From Deltaproteobacteria bacterium RBG_16_49_23 (GTDB lineage: Bacteria; Desulfobacterota; BSN033; UBA1163): a stretch of 43,086 nucleotides of DNA. Shown here piece by piece: positions 5,042 to 25,060 of this stretch. Location: NCBI GenBank assembly GCA_001798855.1, contig MGQQ01000145.1, positions 1 to 43,086 on the forward strand. The letters are read 5' to 3'. The notes under the pieces were generated by a model. It saw only the letters and a program-made list of their open reading frames with translations, ran no database searches and was not told where the DNA came from. The position numbers and the translations under genes were made by a program. Each line of letters starts with the position of its first letter. Positions within the stretch are counted from its first letter, which is position 1.

Positions 5042-5069
5042 AAATCTAAAAGGCAGAATTTTTTTGGGA

Positions 5070-6113
5070 ATGAACTTCAAAGTCGGCATCACCTATAACC
5101 TCAGGAAGGATTTTCCTCAACAAAAAGATCAACCGATTGATTCTTTCGAGGAGTTCGATTCCGAAGAGACAATCGATGCCATTCGCGATGTCCTCGAAAG
5201 CGACGGACACAAAGTATTCAAGCTGGGTGGCGGGACCGGTCTAATCGACCGGTTGAGAACCACTCCTGTTGATATCGTTTTCAACATCGCAGAGGGGATA
5301 GGGGGACGCAACAGGGAAGCCCACATCCCCGCCCTCCTGGAATTTTTGAATATTCCCTATACCGGATCCGATCCCCTCACCCTGTCCCTCACCCTGGATA
5401 AAGCGATGGCAAAGAAGTTGGTCAGGAGTGATGGAATTCCCACTCCCGGGTTTAAGAAAGTGGAGAGGATGGAAGATCTCCATGGCATCGATCTTCGCTA
5501 CCCCCTTTTCGTGAAGTTGTGTTATGAAGGGTCGAGTAAAGGGGTACGGCTTGATTCAAAGATCTCAGAGCCAGCCGCCTTGAGGGAGAAGGTGGGGTGG
5601 CTTCTGGAGACTTACGGGTCGCCCCTTTTGGTCGAAGAGTTTGTGAGCGGCCCTGAATTTACCGTGGGAATACTGGGTAATTCAAATCCCACTGTTCTCG
5701 GCGTGATGCAGATCGAGATCAAAGGGAGTCCTCCTGATGAGGCGATCTATTCTCTGGAGGTGAAGAGGGAGTGGGAGGAGAGAGTCCGTTACCACTGCCC
5801 TCCTCCGATCCCCGCCGATCGATTAAAGAGGATTGAAGAGGTGGCGCTGAGGGTCTATCGCACCCTGGAATGCAGGGATGTATCCAGAGTGGATATCCGC
5901 ATCGGGAGAGACGGGGTCCCTTACTTTTTGGAGGTCAATCCCCTTCCCGGGCTCTCTCCTGTCTATGGCGATCTTCCCATCATGGCCGGGCGGATGGGAT
6001 GGGAGTATAGCCGATTGGTCAAAACGGTTTTCCATCATGCCCTGAAGCGATATGGAATGGCCGGCACGAGCCGGAACGATTGTTATGCCGGCGCTCAAAA
6101 CCGGGCGGAGTGA
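5070..6113 (+). CDS. D-Ala-D-Ala-ligase-like ATP-grasp enzyme (1)
   Basis: 347 residues from ATG 5070; an in-frame TTG at 5064 is an alternative. The order of Ddl elements is visible: N-terminal substrate domain with VDIVFNIAEGIGGRNREAHI and IPYTGSDPLTLSLTLDK, ATP-grasp lysine segment YPLFVKLCYEGSSKGVRL, the LLVEEFVSGPEFTVGILG strand, and the metal-binding FLEVNPLPGLSP near the C-terminus. Such enzymes join a carboxylate to an amine through an acyl phosphate. It differs from genuine Ddl (no HGxxGEDG loop), so the amino-acid substrates are not predictable. A related paralogue follows KamA at 11404, suggesting both serve one pathway. The promoter at 5013 reads into it; the next gene starts 3 nt after its stop. 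Confidence 0.85.
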   Translation: MNFKVGITYNLRKDFPQQKDQPIDSFEEFDSEETIDAIRDVLESDGHKVFKLGGGTGLIDRLRTTPVDIVFNIAEGIGGRNREAHIPALLEFLNIPYTGSDPLTLSLTLDKAMAKKLVRSDGIPTPGFKKVERMEDLHGIDLRYPLFVKLCYEGSSKGVRLDSKISEPAALREKVGWLLETYGSPLLVEEFVSGPEFTVGILGNSNPTVLGVMQIEIKGSPPDEAIYSLEVKREWEERVRYHCPPPIPADRLKRIEEVALRVYRTLECRDVSRVDIRIGRDGVPYFLEVNPLPGLSPVYGDLPIMAGRMGWEYSRLVKTVFHHALKRYGMAGTSRNDCYAGAQNRAE

Positions 6114-9978: not shown

Positions 9979-10028
9979 GTTTGCGAAGGGATTGAATCTC
10001 ACGGGCAGGGATGCGGGAAGGAGTGAAA

Positions 10029-11312
10029 ATGGAGCCTGCCTCAGACTCTAATTTATCTGTCCCGCTAAGAAGAATCGAGAGACCATTACAACTTGGATTA
10101 TTTCAAAACTCAGAAGAAGAGAAGGCAGTCGTTGAAACAAAAGAGACCCTTCCTCACTTCTGGAAGGAGGTCACGGAAAGGGAATGGAATGACTGGAGAT
10201 GGCAACTCCGACATCGGATCACGACGCTTGACCAGCTTAAAGAAATCATCCAGTTGATTCCGGAAGAGATCGAGGGAATCAAACATTCCAAAGGGAGACT
10301 GGCCCTGGCCGTCACTCCATACTTTGTCAATCTAATGGATCCGGTAAATCCGAATTGCCCCATCCGGAGACAGGCCATCCCCCGGGTTGAGGAGCGCCAC
10401 CTCTCCAAGAGCGATATGGTGGACCCCTGCGGAGAGGATAAGGATTCTCCGGTACCCGGTCTCGTCCACCGTTACCCGGACCGGGTCCTTTTGCTGATCA
10501 CCGATCAATGCGCTGTCTATTGCCGTTATTGCACCCGGAGACGGCTGGTAGGAAGCACGGAACGGTCGATCACAGAAGGAAATTTTGAAGAGGTTATCAA
10601 ATATCTGAAGAAAAACCGGAAGGTCCGGGATGTCCTTCTCTCAGGAGGGGATCCCCTTCTCCTCGAAAATGAGAGACTGGAGGAGATTTTAAGCCGCTTG
10701 AGGGCAATCCCCCATATCGAACTCCTCCGGATCGGCACGAGGGTTCCGGTCTCCCTTCCCCAGAGAATCACTTCGGGATTGGTAAAGATGCTCAAAAAAT
10801 ACCATCCCCTGATGATATCCATCCATTTCACCCATCCTAAGGAGATCACCGATGCGGTGAAGAGGGCCTGTAATGATCTTGCAGACAGCGGAATTCCTCT
10901 GGGAAGTCAGACCGTCCTTCTCAAGGGGATTAATGATAAGGCCCATATTATGAAGAGACTGCTTCATGAACTTCTTAAGATCCGGGTCCGGCCCTATTAT
11001 ATCTATCAGTGTGACCTGGCCATGGGAACGGAGCATTTCAGGACCTCTGTCGCCACAGGGATTCAGATCATCGAGAAGCTTCGCGGCCATACCACAGGTT
11101 ATGCCATTCCCACCTTTGTGGTGGATGCGCCGGGAGGAGGAGGGAAGATCCCTGTGGAGCCCAACTACCTGGTTTCCAGGGGGAAAGGGAAGATGGTCTT
11201 AAGAAATTATGAAGGGAAGATCTACGAATATCCGGAACCGAATATCATTGAATTCAAGAAAGCAAAATCAAACAGCGATGAGAAGGTCGCAACAAAGAAG
11301 GTGATGGCCTAG
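10029..11312 (+). CDS. kamA: L-lysine 2,3-aminomutase (KamA/AblA)
   Basis: 427 residues from ATG 10029, preferred over ATG 10011 because GGAAGGAG sits 6 nt upstream. This radical-SAM, PLP-dependent enzyme converts L-lysine to beta-lysine. The 4Fe-4S/SAM motif CAVYCRYC (C161, C165, C168), SGGDPL (205-210) and PLP lysine K373 in DAPGGGGK are present. D329 (YQCDL) and D366 (VVDAPG) correspond to the two aspartates that bind the lysine side-chain amine in the clostridial enzyme; glutamate aminomutases change them, so lysine specificity is supported. Length and C-terminal PVEPNYLVS...VLRNYEG region fit full KamA rather than the shorter EpmB. The usual partner AblB acetyltransferase is not in the window; a ligase-like ATP-grasp gene follows instead. 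Confidence 0.93.
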   Translation: MEPASDSNLSVPLRRIERPLQLGLFQNSEEEKAVVETKETLPHFWKEVTEREWNDWRWQLRHRITTLDQLKEIIQLIPEEIEGIKHSKGRLALAVTPYFVNLMDPVNPNCPIRRQAIPRVEERHLSKSDMVDPCGEDKDSPVPGLVHRYPDRVLLLITDQCAVYCRYCTRRRLVGSTERSITEGNFEEVIKYLKKNRKVRDVLLSGGDPLLLENERLEEILSRLRAIPHIELLRIGTRVPVSLPQRITSGLVKMLKKYHPLMISIHFTHPKEITDAVKRACNDLADSGIPLGSQTVLLKGINDKAHIMKRLLHELLKIRVRPYYIYQCDLAMGTEHFRTSVATGIQIIEKLRGHTTGYAIPTFVVDAPGGGGKIPVEPNYLVSRGKGKMVLRNYEGKIYEYPEPNIIEFKKAKSNSDEKVATKKVMA

Positions 11313-11403
11313 TCATTTCAGATTTCAGATTGTAGATTGAAAAGTTCTTGTGGTTAAAATTCAATTTGAAATTTGAAATCTGAAATAGTTGTTGGTTGAT
11401 AGC

Positions 11404-12453
11404 ATGGGGAAGGAGATGGAAAGGTCCGGATTAAGAGTGGCTGTGCTCTACAACCTTCTCGAAAGGCTTGAGAAAGGGGAGGAGAAGGATATCCTGGCAG
11501 AGGAGTCGATCCTCGAGGAGATCGGTGCGATCGAAGAGGGGATCCGTTCCCTGGGACATCAGTTTTTTGTGATGGCCGTGCGCAATGAGATCGATACGGT
11601 CATCCACTGGTTGAAAGAGATTCGACCCGATGTCATCTTCAACCTTTGTGAGAGTGTGTATGGAGACGCGCGCCTGGAAATGAATATCCCCGCCCTGCTG
11701 GATCTCTTACGAATTCCTTATACAGGGTCTTCTCCCCTGACCCTTGGGTTGTGTCAGGACAAAGGGAAGGTGAAGGATATCCTCTCCTCTCAGGGTATCC
11801 TCACCCCCCGGTATAAAATATTCGATCGAGAGGTCGGCTCTCTGAAAGGAAATATCTTTCCCATTATCGTCAAACCCCTCCACGAAGATGGCAGCCTCGG
11901 GATCTCCAAGGAGAGCGTGGTCTATAATGATGAAGCCCTGAACAGAAGAATCCGGTATGTCATCGAAAAATATCAACAGCCCGCGCTCGTGGAGGAGTAT
12001 ATCGAAGGCAGGGAGTTGAATGTGGGTTTGCTGGAGACGAATGGTAAGGTGGGAGCCCTTCCCATTTCTGAGATCGACTACTCAGAATTTCCTGAAGGGG
12101 TTCCACGGATTTGCGGTTATGAAGCCAAGTGGGTGAAGGAGAGCATCGAATATCAGAAGTCAAAACCGGTCTGCCCCGCCCCATTGGAATGGGTGATTCA
12201 GAGGCGGGTGGAACATCTTGCCATTAAGGTCTTTAAACTCTTCGGCTGCCGGGACTATGCGCGGGTGGATATGCGTATTGACCGGGGCGGGAAGATTTAT
12301 ATTCTCGAGGTCAATCCCAACCCTGACATCTCCCCGCCCTCCGGTATGGCGAGGGCCATCCGGATTCAGGGGATGACCTATTCTGAATTCATCGGAAAGG
12401 TGCTTGAGAAGGCATTTCAAAGGAAAGATGGGGAGATAATCAATGCAAAATGA
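11404..12453 (+). CDS. D-Ala-D-Ala-ligase-like ATP-grasp enzyme (2)
   Basis: 349 residues from ATG 11404; a TTG at 11389 is possible. Neither start has a good Shine-Dalgarno. It is a paralogue of the enzyme at 5070 with parallel motifs: PDVIFNLCESVYGDARLEMN, IPYTGSSPLTLGLCQDKGKV, IVKPLHEDGSLGIS, ALVEEYIEGRELNVGLLE and the metal-binding ILEVNPNPDISPPSGMAR. The family makes amide bonds between an amino acid carboxylate and an amine with ATP. Placement 91 nt after kamA suggests that it uses beta-lysine or a beta-lysine conjugate, which is inference from position only. The intergenic gap contains an inverted repeat (ATTTCAGATTTCA near 11317 and its complement near 11374). Confidence 0.84.
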   Translation: MGKEMERSGLRVAVLYNLLERLEKGEEKDILAEESILEEIGAIEEGIRSLGHQFFVMAVRNEIDTVIHWLKEIRPDVIFNLCESVYGDARLEMNIPALLDLLRIPYTGSSPLTLGLCQDKGKVKDILSSQGILTPRYKIFDREVGSLKGNIFPIIVKPLHEDGSLGISKESVVYNDEALNRRIRYVIEKYQQPALVEEYIEGRELNVGLLETNGKVGALPISEIDYSEFPEGVPRICGYEAKWVKESIEYQKSKPVCPAPLEWVIQRRVEHLAIKVFKLFGCRDYARVDMRIDRGGKIYILEVNPNPDISPPSGMARAIRIQGMTYSEFIGKVLEKAFQRKDGEIINAK

Positions 12454-14094: not shown

Positions 14095-15876
14095 ATGATG
14101 ATTGATTTTTTAGGAGACTGGAAGAGGACGGATTACTGCGGAAATCTCCGGAAGGAGGATGCCGGGCGGGAGGTGTTCCTTCTGGGATGGGTGCAGAGAA
14201 GGCGGGACCTGGGAGGGCTCATCTTCATCGAGGTGAGGGACCGGTATGGCATTGTGCAGGTAGTCTTCAATCCCGAATCGAATCCCGAAGCCCATGAGAA
14301 AGCTCAAGCCCTTAGAAGCGAATATGTTGTTGGAATTGAGGGAAGGGTGGTTTTAAGGCCTGAAGGGACGGCGAATCCCAAGCTGGGCACCGGCGAAGTT
14401 GAGGTGGCGGTCAAGGAGCTGAAGATCCTCAATATCTCCCGGACGCCGCCGTTTCTCATCGAGGAGGAGGAAGAGGTGGCCGAGAATACCCGGCTCAAAT
14501 ACCGGTATCTTGATTTAAGAAGGCCGGGTTTACAGAAGAATCTGATCCTCCGGCATCGGTTGGCCAGGGAGGTGAGAGATTATTTCGACCGGCTGGGTTT
14601 CCTGGAGGTCGAAACGCCGATGCTCACCAAGTCCACTCCTGAGGGAGCAAGGGATTTTCTCGTTCCAAGCCGTCTCAGCCCGGGCCATTTTTACGCACTG
14701 CCGCAATCTCCTCAACTCTTCAAGCAGATTCTCATGGTCGCCGGTTATGACCGGTATTTTCAGTTGGTGAGATGTTTCCGGGATGAAGACCTCCGCTCGG
14801 ACCGCCAGCCCGAGTTTACGCAGATCGATGTGGAGATGTCCTTTGTAACGGTTGAGGATATCCGGAAAACAATGGAAGGGCTCATGGTTCACCTCTTCAA
14901 AGAGGTCATGGGAATGGAACTGGAGACCCCTTTCCCGATTTTGAGCTACGATGAGGCGATGGACCGGTATGGTCTGGATAAGCCTGATACCCGGTTCGGG
15001 CTCGAATTGAGGGATCTTTCAAAAGTTTTGATGCATTCTACCTTCAAGGTCTTCAAAGATGCGCTCGATAAAGGGGGAATCCTCAAGGCGATCAATGTGA
15101 AGGGAGGGGCAACCTTTTCACGAAAGGAAATCGATGAGCTCACCCACTTTGTCTATGCCTATGGGGCCAGAGGTTTGATCTCGGCCAAAGTGGGCCAGGA
15201 CACCTGGCAATCCCCCATGCAGAGATTCATCACAGATGAGGAGAGAAAATCCGTGGGAAAAGTGATGGAAGCATCGGAGGGCGATCTCCTTCTCCTGATC
15301 GGAGGTCCTTCGAAGGTGGTGAATCAATCTCTGGCAAACCTCCGCCTCCATCTCGGCAAGAAATTAGGGCTCATTCCCGAAGAGGAGTACCGGTTCGTAT
15401 GGATTTTGGATTTTCCTCTCTTAGAATATGATGAGACAGAGAAGAGGTATGCGGCTGTCCATCATCCCTTCACCGCCCCCAGGGATGAGGACCTCTCAAC
15501 ATTGAAGGATCACCCGGAGGAGGTGAAGGCCAAGGCTTATGATCTTGTTTTAAACGGCTCTGAGATCGGGGGAGGAAGCATCCGGAATCATCTGAAGGAG
15601 GTGCAATCCCTCCTCTTCGAGAAGCTGGGGATGGATGAGGAGGAAGCGAGGGAGAAGTTCGGATTTCTGCTGGAGGCTCTCGAATTCGGGACCCCTCCTC
15701 ATGGAGGGATCGCTTTCGGGTTCGACCGGCTCGTCATGATCCTCAGCCATTCGGAGTCGATCCGGGATGTGATCGCCTTTCCCAAAACCCAGAAGGGAAC
15801 CTGTCTGATGACCGACGCCCCTTCGAAAGTAGATGGAAAGCAACTGGATGAGCTGTGGATTAAATTGAAGGTTTAG
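14095..15876 (+). CDS. aspS: Aspartyl-tRNA synthetase
   Basis: 593 residues, the normal bacterial size. The N-terminal OB-fold anticodon-binding domain ([20 protein letters not shown]) is followed by the class II core with motif 1 around [20 protein letters not shown], motif 2 [18 protein letters not shown] and motif 3 [13 protein letters not shown], plus the bacterial GAD insertion in the middle. It charges tRNA-Asp. Leucine follows RRD at residue 39, the residue seen in discriminating bacterial enzymes such as that of E. coli rather than histidine, weakly suggesting that tRNA-Asn is not mischarged. Two adjacent ATGs (14095, 14098) are possible starts. Confidence 0.96.
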
Positions 15877-16139: not shown

Positions 16140-17954
16140 ATGGCCATTGCAAAGAAGAAAAAAGCATTTCAAAGCAAGACAGCTATTGTCCAATTTCCAC
16201 TCCTGGATATCCAGGAGCCGAATCTCTACCGGCATGTCTTTCCCTACGAGGAGGTCTGCCGGATCGAGTTCGATAACCGGTTCGTCTTCATCGATCCTCC
16301 GGAGGAGATCTTTATCACAGACACCACGTTCCGCGATGGCCAACAGGCAAGGCCCCCTTATACCGTGGAACAGATCGTTGATCTTTATGACATGCTCCAC
16401 AAACTCGGGGGCGCCAACGGCGTGATCCGCCAGTGCGAATTCTTTCTTTACAGCGAAAAGGACAAGGAGGCGTTGAGAAGATGTCAGGAAAGGAATTACC
16501 GCTACCCCGAGATCACCGGATGGATCCGCGCTGCCAAAGAAGATTTCAAGCTGGTCAAAGAGATGGGATTGAAAGAAACGGGCATCCTCACCTCGGTGTC
16601 GGATTATCATATCTTCTTAAAATTGAAGAAGAACCGGAGGGTGGTGTTGAGGGAGTATCTCTCCATTGTTTCTGCAGCCCTGGATCTGGGGATCATCCCA
16701 AGGTGCCATTTTGAGGATGTCACCCGTGCGGATATCTATGGGTTCTGTATCCCCTTTGCGCAGGATATCATGCGCCTTGCCGAGGAGGCAAAATTGCCGG
16801 TCAAGATCCGGCTCTGCGACACCCTGGGCTATGGCGTGACCTATCCGGGCGCGGCCCTCCCGCGGTGCGTGCCAAAGATCATCCGTGCCATGGTCGATGA
16901 TGCGGGAGTGCCTCCCGAATATTTGGAATGGCACGGTCATAATGATTTTTACAAGGGGCTGATCAATGCGACCACCGCCTGGCTCTATGGATGTTCGGGG
17001 GCCAATGGGACGCTCTTGGGCTTTGGAGAGAGGACGGGCAATGCGCCGATTGAAGGGCTCATCATTGAATATATCAGCCTTGTGGGTCACAACAACGGCA
17101 TTGATACCACCATGATCACAGAGATCCGAAATTATTTCGAACGGATCATCGGCGTCCACATCCCTCCCAATATGCCTTTTGTCGGAGCCGCCTTCAATGC
17201 CACCAGCGCCGGCATCCATGCCGATGGCATTTTGAAGAACGAGGAGATCTATAACATCTTCAATACCTCCAAGATTCTCAACCGGCCCATTTCGGTCTCG
17301 GTCAATGACAAATCCGGATTGGCGGGCATTGCCCAGTGGATTAACTCACATTTCTCCCTTACCGGAAAAGACCGGATCGAAAAGACCCATCCAGGGGTGG
17401 GAAAGATCAATCGCTGGGTGACGAAACAGTATGAGGAAGGAAGAACGACCGCGATCTCCGACCTGGAGATGGAGAAAGTGACACGGAAATACCTCGCCGA
17501 GATCTTCGTCTCAGAGTTTGACATGTTGAAGGCAAGGGCGCGAGAAATGGCTTACCACATCATCGAACGGGTGATTGAGGAGCCGGGAATGAAGTCCATG
17601 AATACGGAGCAGATCGAGCCCATCTTGCAATCTCTGGTGGATGAATATCCCTATTTGCAGTATGTCTATGTGGTCAATATACATGGAATAAAGGTTACAC
17701 GGACCATCTGTCAGCCCGTGGACCAGGCGAAATTCGCCAATGTCCCGGTGGGGGAGAATTACTCCGATCGCCCCTGGTTTATCAATCCGTTAAAGGACGG
17801 CAAAATTCACGTCACCGACCTCTACTCTTCAAAGCATACCGGAGCGCTCTGTATCACCCTCTCCGGACCGATTCGGGTTGAAACAGGAGAGATCAAAGGC
17901 ATCCTCGGCCTGGATATCCGGTTCGAAGACCTGACCAAGAGCGAGGAGGAGTAG
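16140..17954 (+). CDS. Re-citrate-synthase-like protein fused to a Cache sensor domain
   Basis: 604 residues from ATG 16140 (AAGGA upstream; the open frame before it crosses a repeat). Residues about 55-410 are an HMGL/isopropylmalate-synthase-type TIM barrel with TDTTFRDGQQARPPYT (60-75), CHFEDVTRADIYGF (189-202) and metal site HGHND (265-269). EWHGHNDFYKG, CDTLGYGVTYPGAALPR and AGIHADGILKNEEIYNIF are, from memory, features of the Re-citrate synthases of anaerobes (acetyl-CoA + oxaloacetate to citrate) rather than LeuA. Residues about 465-600 add a PDC/Cache-like domain (GENYSDRPWFINPLKDGKIH, then LSGPIRVETGEIKGILGLDI), normally an extracytoplasmic sensor, here without membrane anchor. It replaces the LeuA regulatory domain and is probably allosteric. 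Homocitrate or another 2-oxoacid reaction remains possible. Confidence 0.82.
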   Translation: MAIAKKKKAFQSKTAIVQFPLLDIQEPNLYRHVFPYEEVCRIEFDNRFVFIDPPEEIFITDTTFRDGQQARPPYTVEQIVDLYDMLHKLGGANGVIRQCEFFLYSEKDKEALRRCQERNYRYPEITGWIRAAKEDFKLVKEMGLKETGILTSVSDYHIFLKLKKNRRVVLREYLSIVSAALDLGIIPRCHFEDVTRADIYGFCIPFAQDIMRLAEEAKLPVKIRLCDTLGYGVTYPGAALPRCVPKIIRAMVDDAGVPPEYLEWHGHNDFYKGLINATTAWLYGCSGANGTLLGFGERTGNAPIEGLIIEYISLVGHNNGIDTTMITEIRNYFERIIGVHIPPNMPFVGAAFNATSAGIHADGILKNEEIYNIFNTSKILNRPISVSVNDKSGLAGIAQWINSHFSLTGKDRIEKTHPGVGKINRWVTKQYEEGRTTAISDLEMEKVTRKYLAEIFVSEFDMLKARAREMAYHIIERVIEEPGMKSMNTEQIEPILQSLVDEYPYLQYVYVVNIHGIKVTRTICQPVDQAKFANVPVGENYSDRPWFINPLKDGKIHVTDLYSSKHTGALCITLSGPIRVETGEIKGILGLDIRFEDLTKSEEE

Positions 17955-18033: not shown

Positions 18034-19017
18034 ATGAGAAGAGTTTGGGTCATATTAAGCGTTGTATTACTTATTCTTTTCTTCACCCTGGCTACAAGCG
18101 AAGCGCAGGTGAAGCCGGGTTGGCCGAAGTCCGTAACCATTGGGGCCGCGCCGGTGGGCGGTGTCTATTTCACCTGGATGGGAGGATTTGCCAAATTACT
18201 GCATGATAAGATGGGGATTCCCGGCAATGTTGAGACAACCGGAGGCCCGGTGCATAATACCCAGTTGGTCGATGCCAAACAACTTGATTTCGGGGGAGTG
18301 ACCGCGGCTCCTGTCTGGGAAGGATGGACCGGAGAGGGCTGGGCCAAAGGAAAGAAACATCAGAACACGAGAGTGATCTTTCCTATGTATGCCACCTATT
18401 TTCAGATGTATGCCCTGAAAAAGACCGGAATTAAAACGATCCACGATCTTAACGGGAAAAGCATAGGAGTCGGTCCTGTAGGCGGGACCCCCGCCACTTA
18501 CTGGCCAAAAATTCTTGAGGCGGCAGGGGTGAAACCCGGCCGAATTACCAATGCGGGGTCATCCGATCTCAACTCCCAGCTCAAGGACGGGATGCTTGAT
18601 GCCAACGGGCAGTCTGTGGGACTTCCCTGGGGGCTCATCAATGAAGTGGAGACGACCCATGATGTCAACGTCATCGGCGTTCCAAAGGCCGACGCCGAAA
18701 AGTTTATCGCCAAATATCCCCTCTTTGCTCCCGGCGTGATTCCGAAGGGATACTATAAAAGCAATAAGGATTACGATGTGGAGACGATTACGGTCTGGAA
18801 CTTTATGATCACCCATAAAGATGTTCCAGGGGATTTTGTATACGAAGTGGTCAAGAAGACTTTTGAAAATGTGGATATCCTTATCACGACCCATGCATCG
18901 GCAAAGGAAACAAAACCAGAGCCCGTCATTTTCAGTCCTATTCCCCTCCATCCAGGAGCAATAAGGTATTATAAAGAAAAGGGCATCAAGATTCCGGATA
19001 AATTGATCCCGCAATAG
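18034..19017 (+). CDS. TAXI-family TRAP transporter solute-binding protein
   Basis: 327 residues; AGGAGG is 9 nt upstream of the ATG. A signal peptide covers about 1-25 (ILSVVLLILFFTLATSEA). The mature domain has TAXI hallmarks: VTIGAAPVGGVYFTWMGGFA, ETTGGPVHNTQLVDAKQLDFGG split over two strands, LNGKSIGVGPVGGTPATYWP and VGLPWGLINEV. TAXI proteins bind small carboxylates such as glutamate or C4 acids in the periplasm and hand them to a DctQM-type permease, which is encoded next. A hairpin with T8 after the stop probably lets the binding protein be made in excess of the permease. Confidence 0.93.
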   Translation: MRRVWVILSVVLLILFFTLATSEAQVKPGWPKSVTIGAAPVGGVYFTWMGGFAKLLHDKMGIPGNVETTGGPVHNTQLVDAKQLDFGGVTAAPVWEGWTGEGWAKGKKHQNTRVIFPMYATYFQMYALKKTGIKTIHDLNGKSIGVGPVGGTPATYWPKILEAAGVKPGRITNAGSSDLNSQLKDGMLDANGQSVGLPWGLINEVETTHDVNVIGVPKADAEKFIAKYPLFAPGVIPKGYYKSNKDYDVETITVWNFMITHKDVPGDFVYEVVKKTFENVDILITTHASAKETKPEPVIFSPIPLHPGAIRYYKEKGIKIPDKLIPQ

Positions 19018-19059
19018 AATCGATGAATGATCTCAAGGTTCTTTGAATCAAGAGAATGT

Positions 19060-19100
19060 GCGGATGAGCCATGCCTCTCATGGCCATTCGCATTTTTTTT
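19060..19100 (+). terminator. Intra-operon terminator or attenuator
   Basis: The arm GCGGATGAGCCATG (19060-19073) pairs with CATGGCCATTCGC (19079-19091) with one bulge, followed by T8 (19093-19100). It lies between the binding protein and permease genes. Confidence 0.7.
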
Positions 19101-19193
19101 AAAGGGTCTTATGATTCTGTGAGAGGGCGGACAACACACTTCAGGCGAGGCGCTCTTTATCGCTGAGGGGAAGGGGAAAAAAGGAGGAGAAAG

Positions 19194-21137
19194 ATGGTAG
19201 AGGAAAAAGTAGTGGATATCAAAGAGGTTGCGCATAAACTGGAAGAGATGCATATCAAAGATATCGAAGTCTCGGGTGGAAGGGAACTGACAGGCATTGT
19301 CTTCAAGGCAGTCTTTGTGATCGGACTTGTCATGAGTCTCTTTCACATCTATGTCTTGACCATTCGGGCCATCGACCCCTGGTATTTCAGGACAATGCAT
19401 GTCGTCTTTGCAGGAGTTTTAATCTTCGCTGTAATCCCTGGATGGAAGAACTCACCCCAAGATCGTCTTCATTTAATCGATTATCTTTTCATTCTATTAA
19501 CCGTGGCTCCTGCCGCCTATATCTTTATTGTATTTGATGAGTGGATCTATCGAGTGGGTGTGGTTCCAAATACTCTGGACTTCATCTTCTCCACCATCTT
19601 TGTCATTACGGTAGTGGAAATGGCACGGCGGGCCACAGGTTTGCCCCTGGCTATCCTCTCAGGGATTTTCATTCTTTATGGTTACTTTGGCAATTATATG
19701 CCAGGCCTCTTTTACCACAAAGGATATTCATGGCCCAGAATGATGACCTACCTCTTCAGTCTGGATGGGATATTGAGCCTTCCTATTTTAGCCTCTGCCC
19801 ACTATATCTTCCTTTTCGTCCTCTTCGGAGCCTTCGTAGAGGCATCCGGAGCAGGTAAGTTTTTTGTCGATTTTGCACGTTGCGCAGCAGGCCGTTTGAG
19901 AGGAGGCCCTGCAAAGGTCTCCATCATTTCAAGCGCCATCATTGGAACAGCCTCAGGATCTTCCGTGGCCAATGTCGTCGTGGACGGAGTCTTCAACATA
20001 CCCTTGATGAAGGCCAGTGGATTTAGGGCTACCGCAGCCGGAGCCATAGAGGCGATGAACTCCACAGGGGGACAGATCATGCCACCCGTCATGGGCGCTG
20101 GCGCATTTCTCATGGCAGAGATTTTGGGGATTCCTTACTCTAAAGTTGCCTTAGCAGCAGTAATCCCGGCACTGCTGTATTACACCTCTGCCTACTGGAT
20201 GATCGACTTTTACTCGGCTTCTTCTGGATTGAGGGGGATGACAAGGGAAGAACTGCCTATTTTCAAAAAGATCATGGTAGAAAAGGGATACCTTCTCGTT
20301 CCCATCGTTGTTCTCCTGTTTTCATTGATGGTGTTGTTCTATTCTCCTTATCGGTCTGCAATGTATGCGATCATCTCTCTCATTATCGTGAGTTGGATAA
20401 GCAAGGCTAGTAGAATGGGATTTCGAAGTGTTATTGAAACCCTTGCCAAAGGAGCAAGAGGGTCGATTGAAATAGCCGCCACCTGTGCTGCAGCGGGGAT
20501 TATCGTCGGCGTCCTTACACAAACTGGATTAGGAATGAAGTTTGCGATGATCATTATCAACTACTCAGGAGGAAGCCTTCTTCTTGCCCTATTCTTCACC
20601 ATGCTGATTGCCATTATTCTTGGCATGGGAATGCCCACCACGGCGGCTTATGCTATATCGGCCTCGGTTTTGGCCCCTGCATTGATTCAGCTTAAAGTTC
20701 CGGCCATTGCTGCTCATCTTTTCATCTTCTATTTTGCCTGTCTTTCTGCGCTGACTCCTCCTGTGGCTTTAGCCGCCTTTGCGGCGGCCGCCATTGCCAA
20801 TGCAAAGACCTGGAATGTAGGATGGTTAGGAATGAAATTTGCGTTGGCTGGATTTCTTATCCCTTATATGTTTGTTTATGGGCCTGCAATGGTCCTTGTG
20901 GGAAGTCCGACAGAGATTACCTTTGTCATTATTACAGGTCTTTTAGGGACTATGGCGCTGGGAGCTGCGGTCCAGGGGTGGTTATTGAAAAAGGCGGGAT
21001 GGATAGAGCGGCTCATCCTGCTGATAGGGGCCCTATGCCTGATCAAACCGGGCTGGGTCACAGACCTCATCGGCTTCGGGTTGCTCATCATTGTTGCCGG
21101 TTATCAATACACAAAATACAAGAAAAGTATTATTTGA
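19194..21137 (+). CDS. TRAP transporter fused permease (DctQM type)
   Basis: 647 residues; GGAGGAGAAAG precedes ATG 19194. After a charged N-terminus (1-40) come about four DctQ-like membrane helices (45-150), then the large DctM domain with GAFVEASGAGKFFVDFARCA, SSAIIGTASGSSVANVV, AIEAMNSTGGQIMPPVMGAG and GMGMPTTAAYAISAS, typical of fused permeases that work with TAXI binding proteins. It imports the bound carboxylate using a sodium or proton gradient. The last codons run into the MITE-like element starting at 21134: the TGA stop (21135-21137) lies inside the repeat arm, so the original C-terminus may have been altered. Confidence 0.93.
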   Translation: MVEEKVVDIKEVAHKLEEMHIKDIEVSGGRELTGIVFKAVFVIGLVMSLFHIYVLTIRAIDPWYFRTMHVVFAGVLIFAVIPGWKNSPQDRLHLIDYLFILLTVAPAAYIFIVFDEWIYRVGVVPNTLDFIFSTIFVITVVEMARRATGLPLAILSGIFILYGYFGNYMPGLFYHKGYSWPRMMTYLFSLDGILSLPILASAHYIFLFVLFGAFVEASGAGKFFVDFARCAAGRLRGGPAKVSIISSAIIGTASGSSVANVVVDGVFNIPLMKASGFRATAAGAIEAMNSTGGQIMPPVMGAGAFLMAEILGIPYSKVALAAVIPALLYYTSAYWMIDFYSASSGLRGMTREELPIFKKIMVEKGYLLVPIVVLLFSLMVLFYSPYRSAMYAIISLIIVSWISKASRMGFRSVIETLAKGARGSIEIAATCAAAGIIVGVLTQTGLGMKFAMIIINYSGGSLLLALFFTMLIAIILGMGMPTTAAYAISASVLAPALIQLKVPAIAAHLFIFYFACLSALTPPVALAAFAAAAIANAKTWNVGWLGMKFALAGFLIPYMFVYGPAMVLVGSPTEITFVIITGLLGTMALGAAVQGWLLKKAGWIERLILLIGALCLIKPGWVTDLIGFGLLIIVAGYQYTKYKKSII

Positions 21138-21375: not shown

Positions 21376-22956
21376 TTGATTCTTACAGAGACTCTGAAAA
21401 AAGCATCCAAACTCTTTTCCGGGAAGCCAGCCATTGTCTGCGGAGGAAGGCGGTGGACCTACCGGGAATTCGATGAACGGGTTAAACGGTTTGCTCAATC
21501 TCTCAAAGCCTTTGGAGTGGGCAAGGATGATAAGGCGGCCATCCTTCATCCCAACTGCCACTATTTTTTAGAAGCCTATTACGGGATTGCTCAGATCGGA
21601 GCCACATCGGTCCCCATCAACACCAGGCTTTCTCCCGGAGAGATCGCTTTTATCCTGCAGGACTCTGAATCAAAAGTCTTGATCTCGGATCCGATGTTCC
21701 AAAAGCAGGTCGATCCGATCAGAGGGAAGATCCCGGAAATTAAAAAGATTCTGTGGACAGGGGATGGGATTCCAGGACGGGAAGAGCGTGATCTCAATTA
21801 TGAGAAAGCCCTCGAACAGGGAGATCCGGACGCTACTCCGGAGACGCCTGTCACGGGAGAGGACATTGCCCAGATTTATTACACAAGCGGGACCACGGGA
21901 CGGCCCAAGGGCGTGATGCTTTCGCATAAGAATGTGACGACCCATGCCCTGGGGACGATTGCAGAAATCCATCTCACGGATCAGGATGTCTGGATTCATG
22001 TGGCGCCGCTCTTCCATCTTGCCGATGCCTGGGCGACGTGGGCGATCACCTGGGTGGGCGGAACGCATGTTCTGGTCAGGGAGTTTGATGCAAAGACAGT
22101 TTTAGAGACGATTGAAAAAGAGAGAGTGACCCTTACCAATCTTATTCCCACCATGCTCAACCTCATGGTCAACTCTCCGGATGTTGGTAAATACGACTAT
22201 TCAAGCCTCAGAGTCCTGCTCAGCGGGGGAGCGCCCATTGCGCCTGAAGTCGTCAGGAAGATTGTCGAAACCTTCAAATGCAATTATATTCAGACCTATG
22301 GGATGACCGAGACGAGTCCCTATCTGACACTCTCCATCTTAAAGGACCATTTGAAAAGATTGCCTGACAGAGAGCAGCTTCAGTTCAAGTCGAAGACGGG
22401 AAGGGAGTTCATCGGCGTCGAGCTGAAAGTGGTGAATGACCGGGGAGAAGAGATCAAGAAAGATGAAAAAGAGGTCGGTGAGATCATCGTCAGAGGAGAT
22501 ATTGTGACAAAGGGCTACTGGAAGCTTCCGGAAGAGACGGCAAAATCGATCAGAGAGGGCTGGCTCTATACGGGCGACATGGCCGTTATGGATGAAGAAG
22601 GATACGTGACCATTGTCGATCGAAAGAAAGATATGATCCTCACCGGCGGGGAAAATGTCTATTCGACTGAGGTGGAGAACGTGCTCTATATGCATCCTGC
22701 CATATTAGAATGTGCGGTCGTTGGAGTGCCCGATGAGAAATGGGGTGAGGCGGTCAAAGGTATTGTTGTTTTGAAGCAGGGACAGATAGCTACAGAGCAG
22801 GAGATCATCCGGTTCTGCAAAGAAAAAATCGCCCATTACAAGGCCCCCAAATCAATCGACTTCATCGACGCCCTTCCAAGAACCGGCTCCGGGAAGATCC
22901 AGAAGAAGGGGTTGAGGGACCGGTACTGGGAAGGCTACGAAAAGAAGGTCCATTAA
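21376..22956 (+). CDS. Acyl-CoA ligase (AMP-forming)
   Basis: 526 residues from a TTG at 21376, fixed by a near-perfect AAGGAGGT at 21363-21370 with 5-nt spacing; no ATG lies nearby. ANL-superfamily motifs are in order: YYTSGTTGRPKGVMLSHKN (about 168-186), YGMTETSP, GWLYTGDMAVMDEEGY, DRKKDMILTGGENVYSTEVE and the catalytic lysine in PRTGSGKIQKKGLRDRYW. It adenylates a carboxylic acid and forms its CoA thioester; substrate (medium-chain, long-chain or aromatic acid) is not resolvable. Its place downstream of a TRAP carboxylate importer suggests activation of an imported acid. Confidence 0.9.
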   Translation: MILTETLKKASKLFSGKPAIVCGGRRWTYREFDERVKRFAQSLKAFGVGKDDKAAILHPNCHYFLEAYYGIAQIGATSVPINTRLSPGEIAFILQDSESKVLISDPMFQKQVDPIRGKIPEIKKILWTGDGIPGREERDLNYEKALEQGDPDATPETPVTGEDIAQIYYTSGTTGRPKGVMLSHKNVTTHALGTIAEIHLTDQDVWIHVAPLFHLADAWATWAITWVGGTHVLVREFDAKTVLETIEKERVTLTNLIPTMLNLMVNSPDVGKYDYSSLRVLLSGGAPIAPEVVRKIVETFKCNYIQTYGMTETSPYLTLSILKDHLKRLPDREQLQFKSKTGREFIGVELKVVNDRGEEIKKDEKEVGEIIVRGDIVTKGYWKLPEETAKSIREGWLYTGDMAVMDEEGYVTIVDRKKDMILTGGENVYSTEVENVLYMHPAILECAVVGVPDEKWGEAVKGIVVLKQGQIATEQEIIRFCKEKIAHYKAPKSIDFIDALPRTGSGKIQKKGLRDRYWEGYEKKVH

Positions 22957-23100: not shown

Positions 23101-23450
23101 ATGGCATACACACCTGAGCTAAAACAACTGATCCGGAAAGTGGAACAGACCCGGCCTCTCAGATTGGCTAAGAGGGGAGAGGACTGGGAATTTCCGAGGA
23201 TGAGCCTCGCCGAAAAAGAGGAACGGCTGAAGAGGTTTCACCCTTCCTATAAAGAGGGCTCATTGCAGGAACTGAAGGTCGGTCCGAGCAAGGGCTATCG
23301 TCTGCCTCCTGAGTTTTGTAGCATTCTGGAGTCCTGGAGCCGGATCGATCCGGATCGGATCGATCTTTCGCAGGTCGCTTACGTAACCGATGTCCTGATC
23401 ATCGGAGGAGGGGGAGCAGGGACAGCAGTAGCGCTTCTCGCTCTCCAAAG
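23101..23450 (+). pseudogene. Flavoprotein N-terminus, cut by an IS66-type element
   Basis: About 115 residues of a FAD-dependent oxidoreductase of the succinate dehydrogenase / fumarate reductase / APS reductase flavoprotein superfamily. After a conserved N-terminal extension (RKVEQTRPLRL, EFPRMSLAEKEERLKRFHP, ELKVGPSKG, DPDRIDLS) comes the ADP-binding strand TDVLIIGGGGAGTAVALLAL (residues 96-115). The frame then continues, without a stop, into transposase sequence. No flavoprotein sequence is recognisable after the element, so the 3' part (about 80 percent of a normal gene) is deleted or lies elsewhere. Confidence 0.75.
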
Positions 23451-25060
23451 TCAATTGGGAGATCCTGAACCTGGAGAACCAGTAGGCGTGCCGCGCTGCC
23501 CCTATCCACCCTCTGATTTCGAATGCTTGTACAGGCACAGTTGCCCGTATCTGGATGGATTGTCCACCCAGTGGGTATTGGAAGAGTACCGACGGGCCCA
23601 TGACGTGTATCAGGAGCATCTGCGAATCATCGATCTCTTTGATGGCGACTTAAAAGCCAGGGATGAGCGGATACGGGTTCTGGAGCGGGACAATGCGCAG
23701 CTTAGGGCGAAACTTCAGGCCTTGCACCGACGGCAATTTAAGCCGAATGAGAAGAAAGAAGTGGAAATAGGTGGAAACAATCCCGAGAGTCCCTCGTCGT
23801 CCCATGAAGGGGAGAAGAAAAAGCGTGGAGCAACGCCAGGACATCCGGGATGGGTGAGGCCCAAGCCGCAGCATATTGATAGGACTGTTGAGGTGCCTGC
23901 CCCCACGATCTGCCCTCATTGTCAATCCGAGGGCTTGGCACCGATCCAAGAAACGACGGAGCACGTTCAGGAAGATATCGTGATCCAGCCCCAGACCCTG
24001 GTCACATGCTATCGGCATGGGCAGGCATTCTGTGCGAGGTGCAACCGTCCCGTGGTTCAGGCAGGCAAGGGTGAGCTGTTGAACGCCCCTATCGGGCCGG
24101 TCGCAAAGTCCGTAGCCCTTTACTTACGCTATCGGATCGGGATTTCCTATCGGAAAACGACGGAGTTGTTTCGGGAGTTATTCGGCCTTGAGTTTGTTCC
24201 GGCTTCCGCCCTGGGGTTCGACCGCAAAGCGGCGGCACAGGGGATGCCGATCTATGAGGATTTGCGCGACAAGATCAGGACCTCCGAGCTGCTCCATGCC
24301 GACGAAACCTCCTGGCGCAATGACGGCGTGGGCCATTTTATATGGTTCGCAGGCAATCAAAACCTCGCCTTCTTTCATATCGACCGGCATCGGTCTGCCG
24401 AGGTGGCCAAAAGCATCTTCGGAGAAAACTTTGATGGGACCCTGGTGCGCGACCGCTATGCCGCCTATAACGGTATCGGTCTGGACTGGCAGACTTGCAT
24501 CGCCCATATCATCACAAAGGCCAAGGAAATCAGAGGGGAACATGCGCTCCTGCTGCAAACCGAAAAAGACACCGCTGTCGCCCCCTTCTGCAATAATCTC
24601 ATCGATCTATGCTCACGACTCTGCGATACAGGCCAGAAGCTCAAATCCGGCCATATCCCCCGGAACGAAGCGGCCAAGCTCGAAAAACGCTTCGTTATGG
24701 AACTCAATCCCGCGAAGCGCGGGACAAACAGACCCTTCGTTTCAAACCTGCCGAGACTCTCCGTAGTTTTCTCGTAGGCCCCGAACAAAAGTCTCTCTTT
24801 ACATTCCTCCGGCGCCCCGGTGTGCCGCCCACCAACAACCACGCAGAACAATCTCTTAGACATCTGGTGATCTTCCGAAAGATATGCTTTGGATCGAGAT
24901 CAAAAAGCGGACTCAAAACTCACAGCATCCTCCCCAGTCTGGTGCAAACCGCCAGAAGACAAGGGGTCCATCCAAGGAAGTTTCTCCAAACCCTCCTCAC
25001 CGCAGATACAGCAACCGCTCAAGCTGCCCTGTATAATAATTCAAGTTGATATCTCCACAA
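23447..25060 (+). mobile_element. IS66-family insertion sequence (ISBst12-like, single ORF)
   Basis: The element contains one large transposase frame and no tnpA/tnpB ORFs. The left boundary is inferred from where flavoprotein sequence ends (about 23447) and the right boundary from the transposase stop (25049); I could not pick out the terminal inverted repeats or the target duplication, so both ends are approximate. Confidence 0.65.
23488..25049 (+). pseudogene. IS66 transposase, frameshifted
   Basis: A plausible own start is GTG 23488 (VPRCPYPPSDFECLY). Present are the coiled-coil region (RDERIRVLERDNAQLRAKL), zinc-finger-like CPHC...CARC, catalytic D in LLHADETSW, D in VRDRYAAYNG, then a shift of frame around 24705-24730 within CCCGCGAAGCGCGGG; the third acidic residue (NNHAEQSLR, glutamate codon 24846-24848) and the C-terminus are in the other frame, ending at 25049. 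The element is therefore probably inactive, unless the frameshift is programmed or a sequencing error. Confidence 0.8.

What the first reader, a model, noticed from the sequence alone, without database searches (positions are those of the whole stretch)
16140..17954. Re-citrate-synthase-like enzyme with a fused Cache (PDC) ligand-sensing domain
Cache domains normally sit outside the membrane in chemoreceptors and kinases. Here one lies at the C-terminus of a soluble acyl-CoA-dependent synthase, in the position of the LeuA-type regulatory domain. This suggests direct allosteric control of citrate (or homocitrate-like) synthesis by a small carboxylate, a design I do not know to be described.
Basis: partly seen in the sequence, partly recalled or inferred. 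Interest (0 to 1): 0.7.

Follow-up and report, generated by a model that had tools for sequence, protein, structure and literature searches.

The report
Citrate-making enzyme with fused sensor domain
A bacterial enzyme that probably makes citrate carries at its end a small-molecule sensor of a type normally found outside the cell membrane; the same combination recurs in many anaerobic bacteria, which suggests that a metabolite switches the enzyme directly.

Summary
Window 16140-17954 (+) encodes 604 aa: an HMGL-type acyl-CoA synthase domain (58-331) followed by one soluble Cache module (493-600, over Pfam's cut-off), where LeuA-type enzymes carry LeuA_dimer. It is a family: 145 of 297 genomes of the host phylum have a relative; 99 of 103 full-length rows examined keep the Cache; the fusion also occurs in eight other named phyla. 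The catalytic part is 62-66% identical to anammox-type relatives linked in print to Re-citrate synthase. In the phylum it tends to exclude Si-citrate synthase (both 29, this only 116, PF00285 only 130, neither 22). Against: Nitrospirota show no exclusion, and the window's own genome holds a Si-type gene. The Cache pocket is nearly fixed (R544, W546, S564, D592 in 99 of 99) and resembles amino-acid-sensing Cache domains, but the published motif is not met exactly. Best reading: a Re-citrate synthase with an intracellular Cache as allosteric metabolite sensor, probably for an amino acid; glutamate is my guess. Product, ligand and allostery are untested, and no structure could be predicted. I found no description in the open library searched.

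The parts
16140..17954 (+). Cache-fused Re-citrate-synthase-like gene, 604 aa plus stop
   Evidence: Cache kept in 99 of 103 full-length rows
16311..17132 (+). HMGL-like catalytic domain (residues 58-331), with R65, D66, H265, H267, N301 invariant in 103 of 103 rows
   Evidence: (PF00682); the catalytic and metal role of these residues is recalled from LeuA
17196..17279 (+). sub-threshold HCS_D2-like subdomain (residues 353-380)
   Evidence: E 0.0013, under the cut-off
17616..17939 (+). Cache/PDC module (residues 493-600), matching only part of the double dCache_1 model
   Evidence: (PF22673 1.9e-12; PF02743 model positions 57-156 of 240)
17769..17780 (+). R544-P-W546-F547, predicted carboxylate-binding part of the Cache pocket
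   Evidence: motif in PMC11237719 (passages)
17823..17831 (+). Y562-S-S564, second part of the predicted Cache pocket
17913..17915 (+). D592, equivalent of the amino-group-binding Asp of amino-acid Cache sensors
   Evidence: PMC7277094 passages
14095..15876 (+). aspS-type tRNA synthetase gene, conserved upstream neighbour (not thought to be functionally linked)
   Evidence: protein 7; cluster 0
21376..22956 (+). AMP-dependent acyl-CoA ligase; follows the synthase in 8 of 8 family relatives examined

Best explanation
The gene encodes a Re-type citrate synthase (acetyl-CoA + oxaloacetate to citrate, on the HMGL/LeuA-type barrel) whose C-terminal regulatory place is held by a soluble, intracellular Cache module. 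The module binds a small metabolite through R544/W546 (carboxylate) and Y562/D592 (most likely an amino group) and passes the bound state to the catalytic part, as LeuA_dimer does for leucine. The most sensible ligand is an end product of the citrate - aconitase - isocitrate dehydrogenase branch, such as L-glutamate. Shown here: domain order, conservation, spread, sequence neighbourhood, genome context. Inferred: citrate as product, ligand binding, allostery, ligand identity.
For: Domains. Catalytic part 62-66% identical to the Planctomycetota loci L171, L174, L177, L179, L191, L194, L195, of which L179 and L195 are titled Brocadia/Brocadiaceae; beside these lie genes that I read by eye as sucC (7 loci) and sucD (5 of the 7). 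PMC8027424 proposes a Kuenenia gene beside a succinate-CoA ligase, 55.1% identical to the C. kluyveri enzyme, as Re-citrate synthase (passages). Host phylum: both 29, this gene only 116, PF00285 only 130, neither 22 of 297; Fisher p about 1e-31, not corrected for kinship; of 90 families with either gene 23 have only this one, 47 only PF00285, 20 are mixed, and 10 families hold genomes of both exclusive kinds. NADP-isocitrate dehydrogenases over the equivalog cut-offs lie directly behind Cache-bearing genes in L013, L061 and L107. Ten of ten sampled genomes of the window's family have an NADP-isocitrate dehydrogenase and an aconitase over cut-off; two of them, G081 and G111, have this gene and no PF00285 match. 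Of 134 catalytic columns conserved at 95% or more in the 94 other rows, the window's protein deviates in one, L to I at 210. Pocket: R544, W546, S564, D592 invariant in 99 of 99 rows; 4 of 5 mapped pocket positions fall among 9 invariant of 125, hypergeometric p 6e-5. Best solved relatives of the Cache profile are the amino-acid sensor Tlp3 (1.2e-11), KinD (8e-10) and PctA (6e-7).
Against: In Nitrospirota the gene and PF00285 do not exclude each other (both 22, this only 9, PF00285 only 58, neither 29 of 118; p 0.82; with long PF00285 matches only 16, 15, 35, 52; p 0.30). The window's own genome holds a citrate synthase gene closest to type II (410.7 bits, just under the 421.3 cut-off) beside sdhA and sdhB, so there this enzyme is not the only candidate; both genes occur in 29 of 297 genomes. 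No characterised Re-citrate synthase sequence was in hand, so membership is indirect. The published amino-acid motif with its own spacing is met in 0 of 135 distinct Cache ends (3 with the spacing printed in the same paper's methods); D169 of Tlp3 is Ser here. The Cache is absent in 4 of 103 host-phylum rows and 39 of 77 named loci, so the catalytic part can do without it.
Confidence: 0.62

Rival explanations
1. The enzyme is a Re-citrate synthase, but the Cache is an oligomerisation or stability module that has kept its old pocket without regulating anything.
For: Cache and PAS domains also serve as dimerisation domains (abstract of PMC8694187 as shown in the search listing). The domain is absent in several lineages whose catalytic parts stay alike.
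Against: The pocket positions stay fixed while the rest of the module drifts: mean Cache identity 54% against 67% for the catalytic part over 4851 pairs, yet 4 of 5 mapped pocket residues are invariant in 99 of 99. Part of that may be structural.
Confidence: 0.18
2. The synthase condenses another acyl-CoA or 2-oxo acid (homocitrate-like, or a longer acyl-CoA), at least in the window's family, where an acyl-CoA ligase gene follows it and most genomes also have a Si-type citrate synthase.
For: Acyl-CoA ligase gene behind it in 8 of 8 family relatives examined; PF00285 present in 8 of 10 sampled family genomes; best NCBIfam scores are homocitrate and isopropylmalate synthase, far under their cut-offs; some relatives are followed by two-subunit aconitase/homoaconitase-type genes that fit subfamily models only.
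Against: The window protein departs from the phylum-wide catalytic consensus in one conservative column; exclusion with PF00285 in the phylum; of five dehydrogenase neighbours scanned, three pass both NADP-isocitrate dehydrogenase equivalog cut-offs, a fourth passes one, the fifth none.
Confidence: 0.13
3. The Cache senses a 2-oxo acid such as pyruvate or 2-oxoglutarate instead of an amino acid (a variant of the best explanation, so the odds overlap).
For: The stretch YSSRITG of KinD matches this family's Y-T/S-S-R/K-x-T-G closely, including S564; that KinD binds pyruvate is recalled, not read here.
Against: In the same alignment KinD has Ala at the D592 place and Phe at the W546 place; W546 and D592 are kept in 99 of 99 rows here, as in Tlp3 and PctA.
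Confidence: 0.22

Closest known systems
Re-citrate synthase of the Clostridium kluyveri / Syntrophus aciditrophicus clade (Li 2007, Kim 2013; known to me through passages and reference lists of PMC12016533 and PMC8027424; the originals are not held)
   Same: HMGL fold; 62-66% identity to anammox-type relatives, one of whose kin is proposed as Re-citrate synthase; tends to exclude Si-citrate synthase in the host phylum
   Different: The clostridial and anammox-type relatives seen here end near residue 450-480 and have no Cache
LeuA/CimA-type synthases with LeuA_dimer PF08502
   Same: catalytic barrel, linker subdomain, C-terminal small-molecule regulatory domain
   Different: the regulatory domain is of another family: Cache instead of LeuA_dimer; two other synthases of the same genome have LeuA_dimer
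dCache_1 amino-acid sensors (Tlp3, PctA; dCache_1AA)
   Same: R/K-x-W-aromatic, second aromatic and final Asp at the published spacing in 128 of 135 distinct ends
   Different: one module, no transmembrane helices; first aromatic one place nearer to R544; Tlp3 D169 is Ser; the output is a biosynthetic enzyme
Intracellular Cache exceptions: YkuI_C, Diacid_rec, actinobacterial stand-alone dCache_1AM
   Same: Cache used inside the cell (PMC4822843 and PMC10104139, passages)
   Different: I know of these in signalling or transcription contexts, not fused to a metabolic enzyme

Membership tests
Re-citrate synthase | HMGL-type synthase with the metal and catalytic residues of the LeuA superfamily | tested here: met
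   PF00682 7.7e-29; R65, D66, H265, H267, N301 in 103 of 103; their role is recalled from LeuA
Re-citrate synthase | groups with characterised Re-citrate synthases | tested here: inconclusive
   Lies in one sequence family with anammox-type and clostridial loci, but no characterised sequence was available; the link through Kuenenia rests on PMC8027424 (passages)
Re-citrate synthase | replaces Si-citrate synthase | tested here: inconclusive
   Exclusion in the host phylum, none in Nitrospirota, both genes in the window genome
Re-citrate synthase | citrate formed by attack on the Re face of oxaloacetate | not testable with these tools
   needs enzyme and labelled substrates
Cache domain (PF22673/PF02743) | profile match over a curated cut-off | tested here: met
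   PF22673 48 bits against 27; PF02743 31.8 bits against 45, under its cut-off
[quoted passage not shown]
   0 of 135 distinct ends; without the first aromatic 128 of 135; with it one place nearer 123 of 135. Control: 1 of 26 other dCache reading frames from five genomes has the core, the 26 being those of 42 other matches for which one search gave a locus
dCache_1AA amino-acid sensor | two Cache modules, outside the membrane | tested here: not met
   one module and no convincing transmembrane segment
LeuA-type regulated synthase | C-terminal LeuA_dimer PF08502 | tested here: not met
   no PF08502 match in the window protein; present in two other synthases of the genome
Homocitrate synthase (NifV type) | NCBIfam equivalog TIGR02660 over its cut-off | tested here: not met
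   141.8 bits against 462.9

The most novel reading that the evidence does not exclude
A Cache domain, the commonest extracellular sensor of prokaryotes, was moved into the cytoplasm and fused to the committed enzyme of the oxidative TCA branch, where it reads an amino acid (glutamate) and feeds back on citrate synthesis. This would be the first metabolic enzyme known to me that a Cache domain controls allosterically, and a regulatory route for Re-citrate synthases across many anaerobic phyla; the Cache-less clostridial and anammox-type enzymes may even be secondary losses (the root of the tree does not decide this).
Probability: 0.33. Interest if true: 0.78.

Novelty: new variant of a known kind. 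Interest (0 to 1): 0.62.

Why it matters
Citrate synthase gates carbon into glutamate synthesis and the TCA cycle. I found nothing on how Re-citrate synthases are regulated in the little that I could read (the words 'regulat' and 'allosteric' do not occur in the main text of PMC12016533). A fused Cache would give a direct, testable control point in a large share of anaerobic bacteria, and would show that Cache domains can regulate enzymes and not only receptors. The mapped pocket residues and natural Cache-less relatives make the test simple.

Tried and rejected
Structure prediction of the full protein from a 50-sequence alignment was not available, so no fold search was possible; profile searches of PDB sequences stood in.

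The TAXI-TRAP transporter downstream as a hint to the ligand: rejected, because none of the 8 family relatives fetched has it there; it looks like an insertion in this genome.

Rooting the tree with two LeuA/CimA-type sequences: their branches are 9 to 10 changes per site long, so I do not trust the root. As drawn, that root falls among Cache-less clostridial rows, which would favour a later gain of the Cache; the unrooted tree allows losses as well. The minimum is 5 changes of the label (106 rows; 80 rows), of which well supported branches force 2.

Second-phylum replicate (Nitrospirota): it did not repeat the exclusion with PF00285. Many PF00285 matches there are partial or sit in frames of about 600 aa that look like ATP-citrate lyase (my reading); leaving the short ones out did not bring an exclusion either.

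A hydropathy count over the other rows failed and was rerun: 4 of 141 rows slightly exceed 1.6 in the C-terminal 165 residues (highest 1.64), which I take as beta core, not membrane helices.

Papers (search listings unless said otherwise): 27 hold 'Re-citrate synthase'; 'Cache domain' with 'citrate synthase' 3, unrelated by their titles; with 'isopropylmalate synthase' 0; 'SYN_02536' 0; Syntrophus aciditrophicus with citrate synthase 13; 'Cache domain' with 'fused', 'metabolic enzyme' and 'allosteric' 3, none on this by title. Further listings. Passages only were read of PMC8027424, PMC12016533, PMC4822843, PMC11237719, PMC7277094, PMC10104139 and PMC11245519. The library holds open-licence papers only.

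Full report
What is there. The reading frame at 16140-17954 gives 604 residues. Pfam finds HMGL-like at 58-331 and a Cache/PDC module (MCP-like_PDC_1) at 493-600, the latter over its cut-off; dCache_1 matches below its cut-off and only at model positions 57-156 of 240. No stretch of the C-terminal part looks like a transmembrane helix. Two other HMGL synthases of the genome carry LeuA_dimer in the corresponding place; a fourth HMGL gene is a pyruvate carboxylase subunit B-type gene.

How widespread. In the host phylum (deltaproteobacterial by the title of a near relative, L160, 94% identical; presumably Desulfobacterota) 145 of 297 genomes have a relative at E 1e-40. I fetched loci for 109 of these 145 genomes, 110 rows. 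After dropping seven rows cut by contig ends (and a second copy of the window), 103 remained, 99 with and 4 without the Cache. Three were dropped (two cut by contig ends, one with a masked stretch). Of the other 77, 38 have the Cache and 39 do not. The Cache is present in loci assigned to Thermodesulfobacteriota 10, Nitrospirota 4, Lentisphaerota 3, Omnitrophota 2, Elusimicrobiota 2, Spirochaetota 2, Auribacterota 1, Margulisiibacteriota 1 and Fibrobacterota 1, three of no stated phylum, and nine titled Deltaproteobacteria bacterium, which the taxonomy file puts under Myxococcota; it is absent in the 11 Bacillota and 14 Planctomycetota of this set. Five of the 77 have the same C-terminus as a host-phylum row. 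In a sample of the clostridial phylum 26 of 249 genomes have a relative at E 1e-60 and none of the 30 matches reaches the Cache. The Cache label needs at least 5 changes on the tree; the root is not resolved.

What the enzyme makes. Seven planctomycete relatives are 62-66% identical to the window protein and lie next to genes that I read as sucC and partly sucD. PMC8027424 describes a Kuenenia gene beside a succinate-CoA ligase, 55.1% identical to the C. kluyveri Re-citrate synthase, as the likely Re-citrate synthase, and calls for biochemical proof (passages). PMC12016533 reports a second, distant Re-citrate synthase clade (about 28% identity to the kluyveri and Syntrophus enzymes; passages). 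In the host phylum the gene and PF00285 avoid each other: both 29, this gene only 116, PF00285 only 130, neither 22. Kinship inflates the p-value of about 1e-31, but 10 families contain genomes of both exclusive kinds. Neighbours over 189 loci, many with short flanks and some fetched twice: an aspS-type gene upstream (82 loci), an aconitase/isopropylmalate-isomerase-type cluster (30 loci, 23 with Cache) and an isocitrate-dehydrogenase-type cluster (29 loci, 22 with Cache). Ten of these neighbours were scanned. Three dehydrogenases directly behind Cache-bearing genes (L013, L061, L107) pass both NADP-isocitrate dehydrogenase cut-offs, that of L159 passes one, that of clostridial L178 none. The short aconitase-like proteins fit subfamily models only, while that of L164 passes the aconitase equivalog. 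Ten of ten sampled genomes of the window's family have NADP-isocitrate dehydrogenase and aconitase over cut-off; G081 and G111 have no PF00285 match.

What speaks against. The window's genome has a citrate synthase gene closest to type II beside sdhA and sdhB, and in Nitrospirota there is no exclusion. So replacement is not the whole story; a division of labour between an energy-yielding Si enzyme and a regulated, anabolic Re enzyme is possible (inference). In the window's family the conserved gene behind the synthase is an acyl-CoA ligase (8 of 8 relatives), which leaves room for another acyl substrate, though the catalytic consensus is kept.

The sensor. Against PDB sequences the Cache profile finds Tlp3 (1.2e-11), KinD (8e-10) and PctA (6e-7). 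The Tlp3 residues that hold the amino acid (K149, W151, Y167, D169, D196; PMC7277094 passages) correspond to R544, W546, Y562, S564 and D592. R544, W546, S564 and D592 are invariant in 99 of 99 rows and Y562 is kept in 89. Four of five mapped positions fall among only 9 invariant of 125 (p 6e-5); part of this may be structural. The published amino-acid motif (PMC11237719, passages) is met except for its first aromatic: core 128 of 135 distinct ends, with the aromatic one place nearer 123, exact spacing 0; control 1 of 26 other dCache frames, a small set. A preprint states that amine-type Cache domains occur only in signalling proteins or stand alone and calls an intracellular case rare (PMC10104139, passages); an earlier survey names two mainly intracellular Cache families (PMC4822843, passages).

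Verdict. A real and widespread architecture that I did not find described: Re-citrate-synthase-like enzyme plus intracellular Cache. The regulatory role is the natural reading, with position, pocket conservation and domain type as support, but no experiment. I rate it a new variant of a known kind.

Noticed in passing
window 18034-21137: A TAXI solute-binding gene and a fused TRAP permease sit between the synthase and the acyl-CoA ligase; in 8 of 8 family relatives the ligase follows the synthase without them, so they look inserted. Solved TAXI relatives include 1us4/1us5.
   Followed up: partly
window 23101-24777: IS66-like transposase gene close behind the acyl-CoA ligase (under the NCBIfam cut-off), perhaps connected with the local rearrangement.
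   Followed up: no
L010, L011, L014-L016, L018-L021, L023, L026, L065, L068, L150, L159, L172: Cache-bearing synthase followed by an aconitase/homoaconitase-type gene, and in L065, L068, L150, L159 and L172 also by a small subunit and an isocitrate-dehydrogenase-type gene: a compact citrate-to-2-oxoglutarate operon (only L014, L068 and L159 were scanned).
   Followed up: partly
L227:1800-5755: The window genome's own citrate synthase gene, closest to type II, lies with succinate dehydrogenase A and B.
   Followed up: partly
Nitrospirota sample: 31 of 118 genomes have a relative, in 29 of which a match reaches the Cache; 16 of the 31 also have a long PF00285 match, which is unexplained.
   Followed up: no
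window 5064-6113, 10011-12453: Two D-Ala-D-Ala-ligase-like ATP-grasp genes near a lysine-2,3-aminomutase-like gene (the second ligase by its sequence only).
   Followed up: no
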